Shown here: positions 35,760-40,480 of the stretch, one piece after another
Layout of the letters: each line of letters starts with the position of its first letter
How positions within the stretch are numbered: the first letter of the stretch is position 1
Assembly (NCBI GenBank): GCA_030448025.1
Contig: JAUJNQ010000005.1
Location: 65,382-106,201 of the forward strand
DNA length: 40,820 bases
Direction of reading: 5' to 3'
DNA from: Acidimicrobiales bacterium
Lineage (GTDB): Bacteria > Actinomycetota > Acidimicrobiia > Acidimicrobiales > GCA-2861595
Notes under the pieces: model-generated
Told to the model about the DNA's origin: nothing
Seen by the model: only the letters and a program-made list of their open reading frames with translations
Database searches by the model: none
Program-made: the position numbers and the translations under genes

Positions 35760-36275
35760 CTACCAGACGAAGAGGCTGCGCCAGTCCGAGCCCAACTGCT
35801 CCCGGACGCGGGCCGGCGTGCTCCGCAGCGTTGATACGGCGACGCGGTCGGCGATGGCTCGCTGGTCGAGGTAGGCCTTGGCCGTCCCCTGGAAGAGGGG
35901 CTTGCGCATCTGGACCAGCTCGTCGGGGGCGTCACCGAGGAACCCCCACACGGTGAAGGCCAGCTCCATGTCGGGCTTCACCGGCGCCCGGCCGAACAAC
36001 GAGGCTCGGCGCAGGCCGACCCCGAGGCAGCCGGCGATGGCATCCTCGGCCCGTTCGCCCTCGGCCAGCTCGAGGCGCTCCTCGAACTGCCCGGCCAAGA
36101 GCATGCCGTATCCCTGGTCCGGGCCCGGAGAGCCGAAACGCCCACCCGTCGGGTGCCCCCGCCTGCCGCCCACCTCGGCCGGGCGGTCCTGGAACCACTG
36201 ACGGGCAGGAGGGAGGCGATCGGCGGGTCGCACGCGATCGACAGAGGACAGCGGCACGTAGTCGGGCTGGGCCAT
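35760..36275 (-). CDS. Conserved hypothetical protein in the leu-gltX operon
   Basis: 171 aa from ATG 36275, which overlaps the cimA stop by one base. No signal peptide or membrane helix. Recognisable features are PPARQWFQDRPAEVG, the glycine-rich SPGPDQGYGMLLAGQFEERLEL and the C-terminal ELVQMRKPLFQGTAKAYLDQRAIADRVAVSTLRSTPARVREQL. I do not recognise a family. The tight coupling to cimA and the 25-base gap to the hydrolase gene support a real gene. Confidence 0.7.
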   Translation of the reverse strand: MAQPDYVPLSSVDRVRPADRLPPARQWFQDRPAEVGGRRGHPTGGRFGSPGPDQGYGMLLAGQFEERLELAEGERAEDAIAGCLGVGLRRASLFGRAPVKPDMELAFTVWGFLGDAPDELVQMRKPLFQGTAKAYLDQRAIADRVAVSTLRSTPARVREQLGSDWRSLFVW

Positions 36276-37888
36276 CACAGCCTCCCGTCGCCGCTACGGC
36301 CGGTCCGCCCGTTGCCGCCCTCGCCCTCTCCTTGATGCAGCAAGCCGTAAACGATGCTGTCCGCCAGAGCCTGCCACGACGCCTCGATGATGTTCTCCGA
36401 GACGCCGATCGTGGACCACGAGCGCTCACCGTCGGTGGAGTCGATGAGCACTCTGGTGACGGCTCCGGTGCCCTTGGCCGTGTCGAGGACGCGCACCTTG
36501 TAGTCCGTGAGGTGGAGGTTGGCGAGCTCGGGGTGACTGGGCCCGATCGCCTGGCGCACGGCGGCGTCGAGCGCGTTCACCGGACCGTTGCCCTCGGCGG
36601 TGGCCACGATCCGCTCGTCACCCACGTGCACCTTGATGGTGGCCTCGGTGACGAAGCGGCCGTCTTCGCGCTGCTCGGTGATCACCCGGAACGACTCGAG
36701 CCGGAAGAAGCCCTGTTCCCACCCGCCGGCCCCTCGCATGAGCAGCTCGAGGGAGCCGTCGGCGGCCTCGAAGTGGTAGCCCCGGTGCTCCAGCTCCTTC
36801 AGGCGCTCCAGCACGCCGCCGAGGGCGGCCCCGTCCACCTCGAGACCCAGCTCCTGGGCCTTGAACTGCAGGGTGGAGCGCCCGGACAGCTCGCTCACCA
36901 CGAACCTGGTGCCGTTGCCCACCAGGTCGGGATTGACGTGCTCGTAGGCATCGCGGGCGCGAGCCAGCGCCGAGGTGTGGAGCCCCGCCTTGTGGGCGAA
37001 GGCCGACGCCCCTACGTAGGGCTGCTGGGGATCGGGGACGATGTTCACCAGCTCGGCCACGTGATGGGCCACGGGCATGAGTCGCTCGAGCCGGTCGACG
37101 GGGATGGTCTCGACACCCATCTTCAGCGTGAGATCGGGGACGATGGTGCACAGGTTGGCATTGCCCGTGCGCTCCCCGTAGCCGTTGATGCAGCCCTGCA
37201 CCTGGGTGGCTCCCATGCGCACACCGGCCAGCGTGTTGGCCACTGCGCAACCACCGTCGTCGTGGAAGTGCACGCCGATGGCCGACTCGAAGCGTGGGAC
37301 CACCTCCTTCACGATGCGCTCGGCCTCGTGGGGCAGCGACCCTCCGTTGGTGTCGCACAGCACCAGGGCTTCGGCGCCGGCGTCCTCGGCGGCGCGCAGG
37401 ACCCGGAGGCTGAACTCCGGGTTGCGCCTGTAGCCGTCGAAGAAGTGCTCGGCGTCGAGGAACACGGTCCGCCCCTCGCTGTGGAGGAACTCCACCGAGT
37501 CGGACACCATGCGCACGGCCTCGTCCAGGTCGGTGCGGAGCGCTTCGATGACGTGGTAGTCCCACGCCTTGGCCACGATGCACACCGTGGACGTCTCCGC
37601 CTTCAGCAGGCGGCGCAGGATCTCGTCGTCGTCGGCCCGGCCCCGGGCGCGCCTCGTGGAGCCGAAGGCCACCAGGGTGGCGGTGCCGAGGCTGAGCTCC
37701 ATGGGCGCCCGCTGGAAGAACTCGTCGTCCTTGGGGTTGGCGCCGGGCCAGCCGCCCTCGATGTAGTGCACGCCCAGGTGGTCGAGCTGCTCGGCGACGC
37801 GGAGCTTGTCGTCCACGGTGAGGGAGAGCCCTTCACGCTGGCTGCCGTCGCGCAAGGTGGTGTCGTACACGTCCACCCTCCTGGGCAT
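36275..37888 (-). CDS. cimA: (R)-citramalate synthase
   Basis: 537 aa from ATG 37888 (GAGG 5 bases upstream); an ATG at 37924 inside ilvE is the alternative. The catalytic TIM barrel starts with VYDTTLRDGSQREGLSLT, the metal-binding HFHDDGGCAVANTLAGV, and GCINGYGERTGNANL; the C-terminal regulatory LeuA-dimer domain is complete (about 395-520). Using citramalate-synthase-type features (YIEGGWPGANPKD, AKAWDYHV) I call it CimA rather than 2-isopropylmalate synthase. It condenses pyruvate and acetyl-CoA on the threonine-independent route to isoleucine. It is coupled to ilvE, and the leader upstream of leuB contains Ile codons. Confidence 0.9.
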   Translation of the reverse strand: MPRRVDVYDTTLRDGSQREGLSLTVDDKLRVAEQLDHLGVHYIEGGWPGANPKDDEFFQRAPMELSLGTATLVAFGSTRRARGRADDDEILRRLLKAETSTVCIVAKAWDYHVIEALRTDLDEAVRMVSDSVEFLHSEGRTVFLDAEHFFDGYRRNPEFSLRVLRAAEDAGAEALVLCDTNGGSLPHEAERIVKEVVPRFESAIGVHFHDDGGCAVANTLAGVRMGATQVQGCINGYGERTGNANLCTIVPDLTLKMGVETIPVDRLERLMPVAHHVAELVNIVPDPQQPYVGASAFAHKAGLHTSALARARDAYEHVNPDLVGNGTRFVVSELSGRSTLQFKAQELGLEVDGAALGGVLERLKELEHRGYHFEAADGSLELLMRGAGGWEQGFFRLESFRVITEQREDGRFVTEATIKVHVGDERIVATAEGNGPVNALDAAVRQAIGPSHPELANLHLTDYKVRVLDTAKGTGAVTRVLIDSTDGERSWSTIGVSENIIEASWQALADSIVYGLLHQGEGEGGNGRTGRSGDGRL

Positions 37889-37910
37889 GGACGCCTCGAA
37901 CGTGTGTGGG

Positions 37911-38831
37911 TCAGGTGTTGACATGCTCCAACCAATCCTTGTAGCGGTCGGCTTCACCCTTGACGGCGGCGAAGAAGGTGTCCTGGACCTTGCGGGTGAT
38001 GGGCCCGGGCTCGCCCACCTCGCGATCGTCGATCGAGCTGATGGGAACGACCTCGGCCGCCGTGCCGGTGAGAAAGGCCTCCTCGGCGGTGTACAGGTCG
38101 GAGCGCAGGATGTTGGCCACCACGTGCTCGAAGCCGAGGTCCCGTGCGATGGTCATGATCGAGCGCTGCGTGATGCCCTCGAGGGCACCGGCGCTGATGG
38201 GCGGCGTGATGATGCGCCCGTCCTTCACGATGAAGAGGTTCTCGCCCGTGCACTCGCTCACGTACCCCTGGGGTGACAGCAGGATGGCCTCGTCGTAGCC
38301 CGCCTTGAGGGCCTCCACCTTGGCCATCGAGGAGTTGAGGTACATGCCCGTGGCCTTGGCCGCCGGCGGCATGGAGTTGGGGTCGGGGCGCTGCCACGAG
38401 GAGATCTTCACCCTCACGCCCCGCTTGAGGGCCAACTCGCCGAGGTAGGTGCCCCACGGCCACACGGCGATGGACACCTGGACCGGGCAGGGCAGCGGGT
38501 TGAGGCCCATCTCGCCGTAGCCGAGGTAGACCAGTGGGCGGATGTAGCACGACTCCAAGCCGTTGATCCGCACCGTGTCCTTGGTGGCCTCGATCAGCTG
38601 CTGGGCGCTGTAGGGGATGTCGATCAGATAGATCTTGGCGCTGTTGAACAGGCGGTTGATGTGGTCGGTGAGCCGGAACACGGCCGGGCCCTCGGAGGTG
38701 GCGTAGGCGCGGATGCCCTCGAACACGCCACTGCCATAGTGCAGGGCGTGGGTGAGGATGTGGACGTTGGCGTCGTCCCAGTCGACGAGCTCCCCGTCCA
38801 TCCAGATCTTGTCGACCTTCTGCAGCGGCAT
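37911..38831 (-). CDS. ilvE: Branched-chain amino acid aminotransferase
   Basis: 306 aa from ATG 38831, 5 bases after leuB. Fold type IV PLP enzyme: ILTHALHYGSGVFEGIRAY, IRPLVYLGYGEMGLNP, the PLP Lys in PPAAKATGMYLNSSMAKVEAL, and EAILLSPQGYVSECTGENLFIV with the cofactor-binding Glu. It catalyses the last step in Leu, Ile and Val synthesis using glutamate. Its length is normal. Its place between leuB and cimA makes a branched-chain amino acid operon. Confidence 0.95.
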   Translation of the reverse strand: MPLQKVDKIWMDGELVDWDDANVHILTHALHYGSGVFEGIRAYATSEGPAVFRLTDHINRLFNSAKIYLIDIPYSAQQLIEATKDTVRINGLESCYIRPLVYLGYGEMGLNPLPCPVQVSIAVWPWGTYLGELALKRGVRVKISSWQRPDPNSMPPAAKATGMYLNSSMAKVEALKAGYDEAILLSPQGYVSECTGENLFIVKDGRIITPPISAGALEGITQRSIMTIARDLGFEHVVANILRSDLYTAEEAFLTGTAAEVVPISSIDDREVGEPGPITRKVQDTFFAAVKGEADRYKDWLEHVNT

Positions 38832-38836
38832 GGCGG

Positions 38837-39826
38837 TCAGACCCTCTCCGCCACGGCGTCGCCGAGCTGCTTGGTGGTGCCCGTGAGGGTGGAGGCTTCG
38901 GCCACCGCCTTGGCCACGCGCTCGGCAGCGGTGGTCTCGCCGAGGAAGTCGAGCATCATGGCCGCAGATCGTACGGCGGCCAGCGGGTTGGCCGTACCCG
39001 TGCCGACGATGTCGGGTGCCGAACCGTGCACCGGCTCGAAGAGCGAAGGGCCGGTTCGAGCGGGGTTCAGGTTGGCCGAGGCGGCCAGGCCGATGCCCCC
39101 GGCCACGGCCCCGCCCAGGTCGGTGAGGATGTCTCCGAAGAGGTTGTCGGTGACGATCACGTCGTAGCACTCGGGTGAGCCGACGAGGTACATGCACGCG
39201 GCGTCGACGTGGTGATAGCCGGTTCCCACGTCGGGGAACTCGGCGGAGACCTCGTCCACCGTGCGCTGCCAGAGGTCGCCGGCGTAGGTGAGCACGTTGG
39301 TCTTGTGCACCAGGGTGAGGTGGCGGCGGTGGCGACTCTCTGCCAGCTCGAAGGCGAAGCGCACGCAGCGCTCCACGCCCATGCGGGTGTTGACCGATCC
39401 CTGGGTGGCCACCTCGTGGGGAGTGCCCTTGCGCAGCGACCCACCCTCACCGGCATAGCTACCCTCGGTGTTCTCCCGTACGACCATGCAGTCGATGCGA
39501 GGAAGGTCGGCGCCCGCGCCCAGGAGCGGCCGGAGGTTGACGTAGAGGTCCAGCTCGAAGCGCAAGCGCAGAAGGAGGCCGCGCTCCAACACCCCGGGAG
39601 GAACGTCGGGCATGCCCACGGCCCCGAGCAGCACGGCGTCGAGCCCGGCGATCTCCTCGAGCACGGCGTCGGGCAGGACCTCGCCGCTGCGCAGGTAGCG
39701 GGCACCGCCGAGGTCGTAGTCGACGGTGTCGAGGGCCACGCCGGCGGCGGCGACCACCTTCAGGGCCTCGGCGACGACCTCGGGGCCGATGCCGTCGCCA
39801 CCGATGACGCCGACCTTGTGAGACAA
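38837..39826 (-). CDS. leuB: 3-isopropylmalate dehydrogenase
   Basis: 329 aa from TTG 39826, with AAGGAG 8 bases upstream; the frame extends to 40351 but that runs across the attenuator and greA. Motifs: [27 protein letters not shown], the catalytic KTNVL and [24 protein letters not shown], then [21 protein letters not shown]. It oxidises and decarboxylates 3-isopropylmalate in leucine synthesis; in organisms with CimA it can also act on the homologous citramalate-route intermediate. It is the first gene of the operon, directly behind an attenuator-like leader. Confidence 0.95.
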
Positions 39827-39848
39827 CTCAATCGCTCCTTGAACAAAG

Positions 39849-39874
39849 AAAAACCGCCCACTCTTGTGGACGGT
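39849..39874 (-). terminator. Intrinsic terminator in the leu leader (attenuator)
   Basis: On the minus strand ACCGTCCAC, loop AAGA, GTGGGCGGT form a 9-bp stem with one G-U pair, followed by a U-rich run. It ends about 20 bases before the leuB start and lies within the transcribed leader, so it must be bypassed for leuB to be expressed. Confidence 0.8.
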
Positions 39875-39879
39875 CAGAG

Positions 39880-39903
39880 GCGCACACCCGGGAAGGCGTG
39901 CGC
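39880..39903 (-). promoter_or_regulatory. Upstream hairpin of the leu leader
   Basis: GCGCACGCC and GGTGTGCGC pair over 9 bp (one G-U) around a short loop, starting directly after the leader-peptide stop codon. A ribosome stalled on the leader peptide's Val/Ile codons would be close enough to affect its folding. Confidence 0.6.
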
Positions 39904-39936
39904 TTATCGAATGATGATCACGGGATAGGTGGACAC
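39904..39936 (-). CDS. Leader peptide of the leu-ilv-cim operon
   Basis: A 10-codon frame from GTG 39936 to TAA 39904 encodes [10 protein letters not shown]. It contains Val-Ile-Ile-Ile directly before the last codon, the kind of regulatory codon run seen in branched-chain amino acid leader peptides. A -10 box (TACACT) ends nine bases before the GTG and there is no Shine-Dalgarno, so translation may be leaderless or nearly so. It is followed at once by a hairpin and then a terminator. Confidence 0.6.
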
Positions 39937-39945
39937 AGCCCACTG

Positions 39946-39951
39946 AGTGTA
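39946..39951 (-). promoter_or_regulatory. -10 box TACACT of the leu operon
   Basis: TACACT on the minus strand, 9 bases before the leader-peptide GTG. No clear -35 is seen. It lies about 25 bases from the greA -10 on the opposite strand, so the two promoters are back to back. Confidence 0.45.
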
Positions 39952-39973
39952 CCGGGCTTTGGTCGCCTGGCGC

Positions 39974-39979
39974 TAGCCT
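39974..39979 (+). promoter_or_regulatory. -10 box TAGCCT, leaderless start of greA
   Basis: TAGCCT ends 6 bases before the ATG at 39986 and no Shine-Dalgarno is present, so transcription probably begins on the start codon. Confidence 0.5.
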
Positions 39980-39985
39980 GGACCG

Positions 39986-40480
39986 ATGTCGGAGATCGGT
40001 CAGGCTCAGGAGATCAGCCAGACGCAGCTGTCGCAGGAGGCCTACGACCGGCTGGCCGCGGAGCGTGAAGATCTCGTAACTCGGGGCAGAGTGGACATCG
40101 CCCGTGCCATCGAGGCGGCTCGAATGCTCGGTGACCTCAAGGAGAACGGTGATTACCACGCGGCCAAGGACTCCCAGGGAAAGATGGAGGCCCGGATCCG
40201 CCAGATCGACAACCTCCTCGCCCACGCCGACATCGTCGAGCCCGTCGCCGCTGGTGACGCGGTGGCCGCCGGCTCGGTGGTGTCGCTGCGCTATGAAGGC
40301 GACGACGACGTCGAGCGCTTCCTTATCGGGTCCATCGAGGAGCGCCGCCATGACCTGTCGGTGATCTCACCCGGGTCGCCCCTCGGCCAGGTCCTACTAG
40401 GGCGCCAGCCGGGCGACACGGTGGAGTACCAGGCGCCGGGCGGGATGCTCAAGGTGGAGATCGTGGAGGTCGGCTCCTAG
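39986..40480 (+). CDS. greA: Transcription elongation factor GreA
   Basis: 164 aa. The N-terminal coiled-coil (about 15-85) contains [57 protein letters not shown], with the catalytic acidic tip [12 protein letters not shown] that inserts into the RNA polymerase secondary channel. The C-terminal FKBP-like domain has [28 protein letters not shown]. It rescues backtracked polymerase by stimulating transcript cleavage. It is divergent from the leu operon and followed by a short membrane-protein gene. Confidence 0.95.

What the first reader, a model, noticed from the sequence alone, without database searches (positions are those of the whole stretch)
39849..39951. Attenuator with a 10-residue Val-Ile-Ile-Ile leader peptide in front of leuB-ilvE-cimA
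In order on the minus strand: a -10 box, a GTG-initiated leader [10 protein letters not shown], a 9-bp GC hairpin beginning at the leader stop, and a 9-bp intrinsic terminator with a U tail, then the leuB ribosome site. This is the layout of ribosome-mediated attenuation, known for ilv and leu operons in proteobacteria and described for some actinobacterial ilv/leu genes. The codon run suggests sensing of Ile and Val rather than Leu, which fits an operon that contains citramalate synthase. A partial antiterminator pairing between CGCCUCU and AGAGUGGGCG on the leader is conceivable. The leaderless or near-leaderless leader peptide is an unusual twist.
Basis: partly seen in the sequence, partly recalled or inferred. 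Interest (0 to 1): 0.7.

Follow-up and report, generated by a model that had tools for sequence, protein, structure and literature searches.

The report
Compact leaderless attenuators for branched-chain genes
The start of this isoleucine-pathway operon carries a real, conserved switch in which a ribosome reading a tiny 10-codon message decides whether transcription continues; the switch is found throughout the bacterial order, and it lacks the alternative RNA fold such switches normally use.

Summary
A near-leaderless leader ([10 protein letters not shown]), a hairpin fused to its stop codon and an intrinsic terminator precede leuB-ilvE-cimA. The same ~105-nt element also precedes ilvBNC in this genome. 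In the order Acidimicrobiales, 145 of 153 good-quality genomes carry at least one, upstream of leuB, ilvB, cimA or leuA.

In 133 unique elements the control codons sit at positions -5 to -2 before the stop. Their identity tracks the gene: Val/Ile for leuB, Ile for cimA, Val/Leu/Ile for ilvB, Leu for leuA (p=4e-51). Rare GTA is 40-fold over-represented. Both hairpins covary. Ribosome-mediated attenuation is close to certain as the kind of mechanism, though untested in vivo.

Pairing of the hairpin-1 3' arm with the terminator 5' arm is weaker than in shuffled controls; E. coli thrL and hisL show the opposite. A stalled ribosome leaves hairpin 1 largely folded; a ribosome on the stop melts it. 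I propose that folded hairpin 1 acts as a distance ruler: it holds the stalled ribosome ~13-16 nt from the terminator, inside the ~27-nt range where ribosomes block termination in E. coli. A finished ribosome sits at ~27 nt. That step is inference.

The parts
39946..39951 (-). -10-like hexamer TACACT, 9 nt before the leader start codon (transcript expected to be leaderless or with a 1-3 nt 5' UTR)
   Evidence: a -10-like hexamer lies 6-10 nt before the start codon in 111 of 133 elements vs 8% of shuffles; no start site mapped
39904..39936 (-). leader [19 protein letters not shown]; control codons GTG ATC ATC ATT at positions -5 to -2, spacer codon CGA at -1
39880..39903 (-). hairpin 1 (GCGCACGCCU-UCCC-GGGUGUGCGC), starts directly after the leader stop; proposed ribosome-position reader / ruler
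   Evidence: (7 of 8 pairs with two-sided changes in relatives)
39876..39879 (-). 4-nt spacer between hairpin 1 and terminator (0-6 nt in relatives)
39852..39875 (-). intrinsic terminator stem-loop GACCGUCCAC-AAGA-GUGGGCGGUU
39842..39854 (-). U-rich tail of the terminator (overlaps last stem bases)
39835..39840 (-). AAGGAG ribosome binding site of leuB
38837..39826 (-). leuB, 3-isopropylmalate dehydrogenase (TTG start)
37911..38840 (-). ilvE, branched-chain aminotransferase (limits as scanned)
36275..37957 (-). cimA, citramalate synthase

Best explanation
The element is an amino-acid-responsive, ribosome-mediated transcription attenuator. A ribosome loads on the near-leaderless leader and reads four control codons (Val/Ile before leuB) placed 5 to 2 codons before the stop. 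If Ile-/Val-tRNA is charged, it runs to the stop, melts the 5' arm of hairpin 1 and leaves, and the terminator stops transcription. If charging is poor, it stalls on a control codon; it then covers essentially all RNA upstream, hairpin 1 stays folded, and transcription reads into leuB-ilvE-cimA. Shown by sequence: anatomy, conservation, codon placement and identity, covariation of both hairpins, no base-paired antiterminator. Inferred: folded hairpin 1 shortens the ribosome-to-terminator distance to about 13-16 nt, so the stalled ribosome itself hinders terminator folding, whereas a ribosome on the stop is about 27 nt away and does not. I put 0.93 on ribosome-mediated attenuation as the kind and about 0.4-0.45 on this ruler mechanism; the confidence given is for the whole statement.
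For: Same layout before leuB in 17 of 20 first relatives; models find it in 153 of 227 (R1) and 145 of 153 (R2) good-quality genomes of the order, before leuB, ilvB, cimA or leuA. I/L/V fraction at -5..-2: leuB .81/.75/.82/.94, ilvB 1.0 at all four, but .12 and .11 at -1. Residues track the gene, chi-square p 4e-51. GTA is 56% of leader Val codons vs 3% in the genes, OR 40. Covariation: 57 two-sided compensatory cells vs 12.9 shuffled. Hairpin-1 median energy by A-site codon, leuB: -19.8 at -4, -15.5 at -3, -8.0 at -2, -1.7 at the stop. Free distance stop to terminator: median 27 nt, IQR 26-29; effective distance for stalls at -5..-2 with folds removed 16/13/13/16 nt. In E. coli a ribosome within 27 nt of a terminator represses it (PMC4824070).
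Against: No expression, Term-seq or start-site data exist here. The 27-nt figure comes from one E. coli terminator, and a folded hairpin is treated as having no length. At codon -2 hairpin 1 is already half melted (-8 kcal/mol). Pairing programs cannot see tertiary contacts or a trans-acting factor. A weak preference of the hairpin-1 loop for the terminator 3' arm over shuffles (-2.2 vs -1.5 kcal/mol in leuB) leaves a small pseudoknot possibility. Models R1/R2 contain the codon region, so codon conservation among their hits is partly built in, and related genomes are not independent; the codon-free scan and the orthology-based first set do not have the model bias.
Confidence: 0.45

Rival explanations
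1. Classical four-segment attenuator (trp/his type): the stalled ribosome masks the 5' arm of hairpin 1, freeing its 3' arm to pair with the terminator 5' arm as antiterminator.
For: A weak pairing GGUGUGCG x CGUCCAC exists in many leuB elements once hairpin 1 is masked (terminator 5' arm about 0.5 paired with the ribosome at the stop).
Against: 2:3 pairing is weaker than shuffled in leuB, ilvB and cimA (-6.2 vs -7.3, -2.8 vs -5.7, -4.4 vs -5.1 kcal/mol). The terminator 5' arm is least paired when the ribosome is on the control codons, the reverse of E. coli thrL and hisL. Control codons avoid position -1, where masking of arm 1 would be better.
Confidence: 0.12
2. Hairpin 1 itself is the antiterminator without the ribosome's help: folded 0-6 nt upstream, it prevents the terminator from closing its basal pairs in the RNA polymerase exit channel; a ribosome on the stop removes it.
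For: Short, constrained spacer (0-6 nt) while the terminator-to-leuB distance ranges from 15 to 279 nt. Steric plugging of the exit channel by a protein (P7) blocks terminator folding (PMC6624301).
Against: Predicts high expression when the leader is not translated. Folds of E. coli trpL and hisL place pairing 2-3 nt before the terminator, yet those terminate. Double adjacent hairpins are treated as terminators in the literature (PMC8355165).
Confidence: 0.2
3. Hairpin 1 only pauses RNA polymerase to synchronise it with the ribosome; antitermination comes from an interaction not seen by secondary-structure methods (tertiary contact, trans factor, putRNA-like contact with the polymerase).
For: Pausing roles are proposed for leader hairpins (C. 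glutamicum, PMC11857589); an RNA element that suppresses termination through direct polymerase contact exists (HK022 putRNA, PMC9378689).
Against: Hairpin-1 sequence varies with compensation in 7 of 8 pairs, so no specific recognition sequence is evident. Tight coupling of stop, hairpin and terminator distances is not required by this view.
Confidence: 0.15
4. Nascent-peptide arrest (TnaC-like) at the stop codon rather than codon sensing.
For: Many leuB leaders end in Ile-Pro-stop (Pro at -1 in 20 of 68).
Against: Peptide sequences are otherwise free, residues switch with the downstream gene, and rare synonymous codons are strongly preferred.
Confidence: 0.03
5. No regulation: an ordinary terminator and a chance short ORF.
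For: No experiment has been done.
Against: Conservation across an order, gene-matched codons, covariation, and zero chance hits.
Confidence: 0.01

Closest known systems
ilvBNC attenuator of Corynebacterium glutamicum / ilvB-II motif (PMC11857589, PMC10272879) and ilvB1 leader of Mycobacterium tuberculosis (PMC13236596)
   Same: Short leader with Leu/Val/Ile codons incl. GUA, leaderless in C. glutamicum, intrinsic terminator, and the same phase: a ribosome on the control codons leaves the intermediate hairpin free, one at the stop disturbs it.
   Different: There the antiterminator shares bases with the terminator (3-nt overlap in C. glutamicum). Here hairpin 1 and terminator share none and are 0-6 nt apart; the element also serves leuB, cimA and leuA, in another class.
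E. coli thr, ilv, leu, trp, his attenuators
   Same: Leader codons match the operon's product; terminator before the first gene; stop codon about 25 nt from the terminator in thrL, leuL and ilvL.
   Different: Those use an antiterminator involving the terminator 5' arm; here none, and hairpin 1 starts at the stop instead of overlapping the control codons.
Direct ribosomal repression of terminators (pyrBI attenuator; tR2 experiments, PMC4824070)
   Same: A ribosome close to the terminator would prevent its folding, without an antiterminator.
   Different: pyrBI senses UTP through RNA polymerase pausing (general knowledge); here charged tRNA would be sensed and a hairpin would set the distance.
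Leaderless leuL2/ilvL leaders of Streptomyces lividans (PMC8079986); LEU element and ilvB leaders (PMC1262725)
   Same: Actinobacterial leaders with BCAA codons, several leaderless; leuL2 is followed by a hairpin and U stretch.
   Different: LEU element is described as a pseudoknot pairing with the leuA Shine-Dalgarno site. No leuB- or cimA-linked attenuator, and no Acidimicrobiia, in the papers found.

Membership tests
Ribosome-mediated transcription attenuator (broad sense) | Short translatable leader rich in codons for the operon's product | tested here: met
   codons at -5..-2 match the downstream gene, 133 elements
Ribosome-mediated transcription attenuator (broad sense) | Intrinsic terminator between leader and first gene | tested here: met
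Ribosome-mediated transcription attenuator (broad sense) | Expression responds to charging of the cognate tRNA | not testable with these tools
   needs reporter or Term-seq data
Classical trp/his-type attenuator | Base-paired antiterminator exclusive with the terminator | tested here: not met
   E. coli controls
Classical trp/his-type attenuator | Ribosome on control codons masks the 5' arm of the first hairpin | tested here: not met
   hairpin 1 intact for A site at -5/-4, mostly at -3, half at -2
Corynebacterium ilvB-II / C. glutamicum type | Leaderless leader with BCAA codons, ribosome at stop disturbs the intermediate hairpin | tested here: met
   (start site inferred from the -10 position only)
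Corynebacterium ilvB-II / C. glutamicum type | Antiterminator overlaps terminator bases | tested here: not met
Direct ribosomal repression of the terminator (pyrBI-like) | Ribosome within about 27 nt of the terminator in the read-through state and not in the other | tested here: inconclusive
   13-16 nt if folded hairpin 1 counts as zero length, 33-42 nt if it does not; stop 27 nt
Riboswitch, T-box or any Rfam family | Match to a covariance model at gathering score | tested here: not met

The most novel reading that the evidence does not exclude
An antiterminator-free attenuation mechanism conserved across an order: the leader hairpin is a folding ruler that brings a stalled ribosome into the range where it directly blocks the terminator, so amino-acid sensing needs only a ribosome-sized ORF, one hairpin and one terminator (about 105 nt), and one module serves leuB, ilvB, cimA and leuA by changing four codons.
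Probability: 0.4. Interest if true: 0.8.

Novelty: new variant of a known kind. Interest (0 to 1): 0.66.

Why it matters
It indicates that Acidimicrobiales, a group with little regulatory work in the papers found, control branched-chain amino acid synthesis largely through one compact RNA module. It also gives a natural case, with over a hundred variants, in which the textbook antiterminator is absent. If the ruler idea holds, it joins two separate lines of work (amino-acid attenuation and direct ribosome repression of terminators) and offers a very small, re-programmable sensor. The codon window (-5 to -2) is a clean measure of where a stalled ribosome counts.

Tried and rejected
Classical 2:3 antiterminator and all other pairings among leader, hairpin-1 arms and terminator arms: compared with other-class and shuffled partners, only 1:2 and 3:4 stand out. 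Equilibrium terminator probability as a test: dropped, because it stays near 0.96 in E. coli positive controls too; replaced by pairing of the terminator 5' arm before its 3' arm is made. Extension of hairpin 1 into the terminator base: no better than shuffled in leuB and cimA, slightly better in ilvB. Loop pseudoknot: only marginally above shuffled. Rfam: no match. A first inverted-repeat call failed on strand. So trp, his and other leaders of this layout outside the 367 kb scanned were not looked for directly. Canestrari et al. 2020 is not held.

Full report
WHAT IS THERE. On the minus strand, between the divergent greA and leuB, the window holds TACACT (39951-39946), 9 nt, then GTG TCC ACC TAT CCC GTG ATC ATC ATT CGA TAA (39936-39904), a 24-nt hairpin beginning with the next base (39903-39880), 4 nt, a 24-nt terminator hairpin (39875-39852) with a U-rich tail, AAGGAG, and leuB at TTG 39826. 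The fold is better than all 200 shuffles (z -3.6). NCBIfam names the operon leuB, ilvE, cimA. Scanning 367 kb of this genome for short ORF + fused hairpin + terminator, ignoring the amino acids, gives two hits: this one and the leader of ilvB; shuffled sequence gives none.

CONSERVATION. DNA similarity search brought 20 relatives with leuB; 17 carry the same layout with leaders such as VSPTLVIIIS, MTATSVAVIP, VRALSVIVIP, MKTLPSPVVIIA; L016, L017 and L019 do not. A covariance model from these 17 (R1) matches 153 of 227 good-quality genomes of the order. Its second match in this genome lies before ilvB-ilvN-ilvC with leader MSRPRTLVLVT. A model from the ilvB/cimA/leuA elements (R2) matches 145 of 153 good-quality genomes and 129 of 134 genera. 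In a sample of 396 genomes of the phylum, R1 hits outside the class were two. Named relatives are Acidimicrobiia MAGs (Acidimicrobiales, Ilumatobacteraceae, Microthrixaceae). In several Ilumatobacteraceae-type loci leuB has no element but one lies about 1.1 kb past leuB; the one read in full, L100, has the Ile codon run. Downstream genes in every collected element that could be assigned were leuB, ilvB, cimA or leuA.

CODONS. In 96 unique leaders I/L/V codons fill positions -5 to -2 before the stop (leuB .81 .75 .82 .94; ilvB 1.0 at all four; cimA .71 1.0 1.0 1.0; leuA four Leu) and are rare at -1 (.12.11.14). In 133 unique elements the composition depends on the gene: leuB I .50 V .32 L .01; cimA I .86; ilvB V .53 L .31 I .11; leuA L 1.00; chi-square p 4e-51. 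Rare codons are favoured: GTA 81 of 145 leader Val codons against 90 of 2941 in the genes (OR 40); ATT 71 of 172 Ile codons against 148 of 1657 (OR 7). That points to tRNA sensing, not to a peptide sequence. Citramalate synthase feeds Ile synthesis, and LeuB serves that route as well (general knowledge), so Val/Ile sensing fits. A -10-like hexamer lies 6-10 nt before the start codon in 111 of 133 elements against 8% of shuffles, so most transcripts should be leaderless or nearly so.

STRUCTURE. On 65 leuB elements 97.2% of pair cells are standard pairs; 57 cells have compensatory changes on both sides against 12.9 in column shuffles, and sliding the structure destroys this; hairpin 1 has such changes in 7 of 8 pairs, the terminator in 3 of 10. 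Relatedness inflates such counts, so I treat them as support only.

NO ANTITERMINATOR. Among all pairings of leader, hairpin-1 arms and terminator arms only 1:2 and 3:4 exceed other-class and shuffled partners; 2:3 is weaker than shuffled in leuB, ilvB and cimA. With the ribosome on codon -4 and the terminator 3' arm not yet made, the terminator 5' arm is only 0.11-0.13 paired; at -2 and at the stop it is significantly less paired than shuffled arms in both leuB and ilvB. The same measure in E. coli gives 0.85 against 0.52 shuffled for thrL and 0.69 against 0.43 for hisL; trpL, leuL and ilvL give 0.62, 0.52 and 0.48 with little or no excess over shuffles. So the test has power for two clear cases, not for every known attenuator. 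Equilibrium terminator probability is uninformative, since it stays high in the controls.

GEOMETRY AND MECHANISM. Taking the ribosome to cover 12 nt from the first A-site base, stalls at -5/-4 leave hairpin 1 intact (median -19.8 kcal/mol in leuB), -3 mostly (-15.5), -2 half (-8.0), whereas -1 and the stop melt it (-3.4, -1.7). Control codons thus occupy the positions that keep hairpin 1 largely folded and avoid -1, which does not. The C. glutamicum and M. tuberculosis ilvB models have the same phase (PMC11857589, PMC13236596), but there the intermediate hairpin shares bases with the terminator; here it does not, and the spacer is 0-6 nt. With the ribosome on a control codon essentially all upstream RNA of this ~30-nt leader is covered (inference from the footprint), so only hairpin 1 and the terminator remain free. 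The free distance from stop to terminator has median 27 nt (IQR 26-29; 28 nt in the window); from a stalled codon, removing folded RNA, it is 16, 13, 13, 16 nt for -5 to -2. In E. coli, ribosomes within 27 nt of a terminator repress it and those farther do not (PMC4824070). Hence the proposal: folded hairpin 1 holds the stalled ribosome in the repressing range, and the finished ribosome melts the ruler and stands at the edge of that range before leaving. This step is inference. Rivals are hairpin 1 acting directly on the polymerase exit channel, or an unseen tertiary or protein contact.

KNOWN AND NEW. Leaderless BCAA leaders are known in actinobacteria (PMC11857589, PMC8079986, PMC1262725). 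I found no report for leuB or cimA, nor for Acidimicrobiia, in the searches run, and no Rfam family. The library holds open-licence papers only, so subscription literature is not excluded. I file it as a new variant of ribosome-mediated attenuation.

LIMITS. Nothing was tested in vivo; start sites are inferred; models contain the codon region; genomes are related; the 27-nt threshold is from E. coli; only 367 kb of this genome was scanned without a model.

Noticed in passing
L052:7137-7246 (-), own genome contig C12:129136-129245: Second attenuator of the same layout before ilvB-ilvN-ilvC, leader MSRPRTLVLVT*, terminator CGACCUCCC..GGGAGGUCG.
   Followed up: yes
L061:3298-3408, L063:3070-3181, L247:2413-2524: Same layout before leuA with four Leu codons (MSTTSFSLLLLM*, VTTVSFSLLLLM*, MSTISSSLLLLM*).
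   Followed up: partly
L100:3289-3384, also L109, L122, L136, L140 near their ends: In several Ilumatobacteraceae-type loci leuB lacks the element and one lies about 1.1 kb past leuB; L100 shows an Ile codon run. The element seems to follow the Ile pathway gene when operons are rearranged.
   Followed up: partly
window 38837-40351 (-): The mechanical leuB frame is open back to ATG 40351, through the attenuator and antisense to greA; automatic annotation could give LeuB a false N-terminal extension and hide the leader.
   Followed up: no
window 39852-39875 (terminator stem U-G pair): In leuB elements one terminator pair is kept as a U-G wobble (56 of 65; U in the 5' arm in 62), although C-G would be stronger; reason unknown.
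   Followed up: no
L170:659-767 and L171:2493-2593: Two R1 matches in genomes of the phylum outside the class (leader MSFSQVVIIR before leuB; MSQNLLLT before a cimA-like gene): possible transfer or a wider range.
   Followed up: no
L016, L017, L019: Relatives whose leuB upstream region lacks the element; what replaces it was not examined.
   Followed up: no
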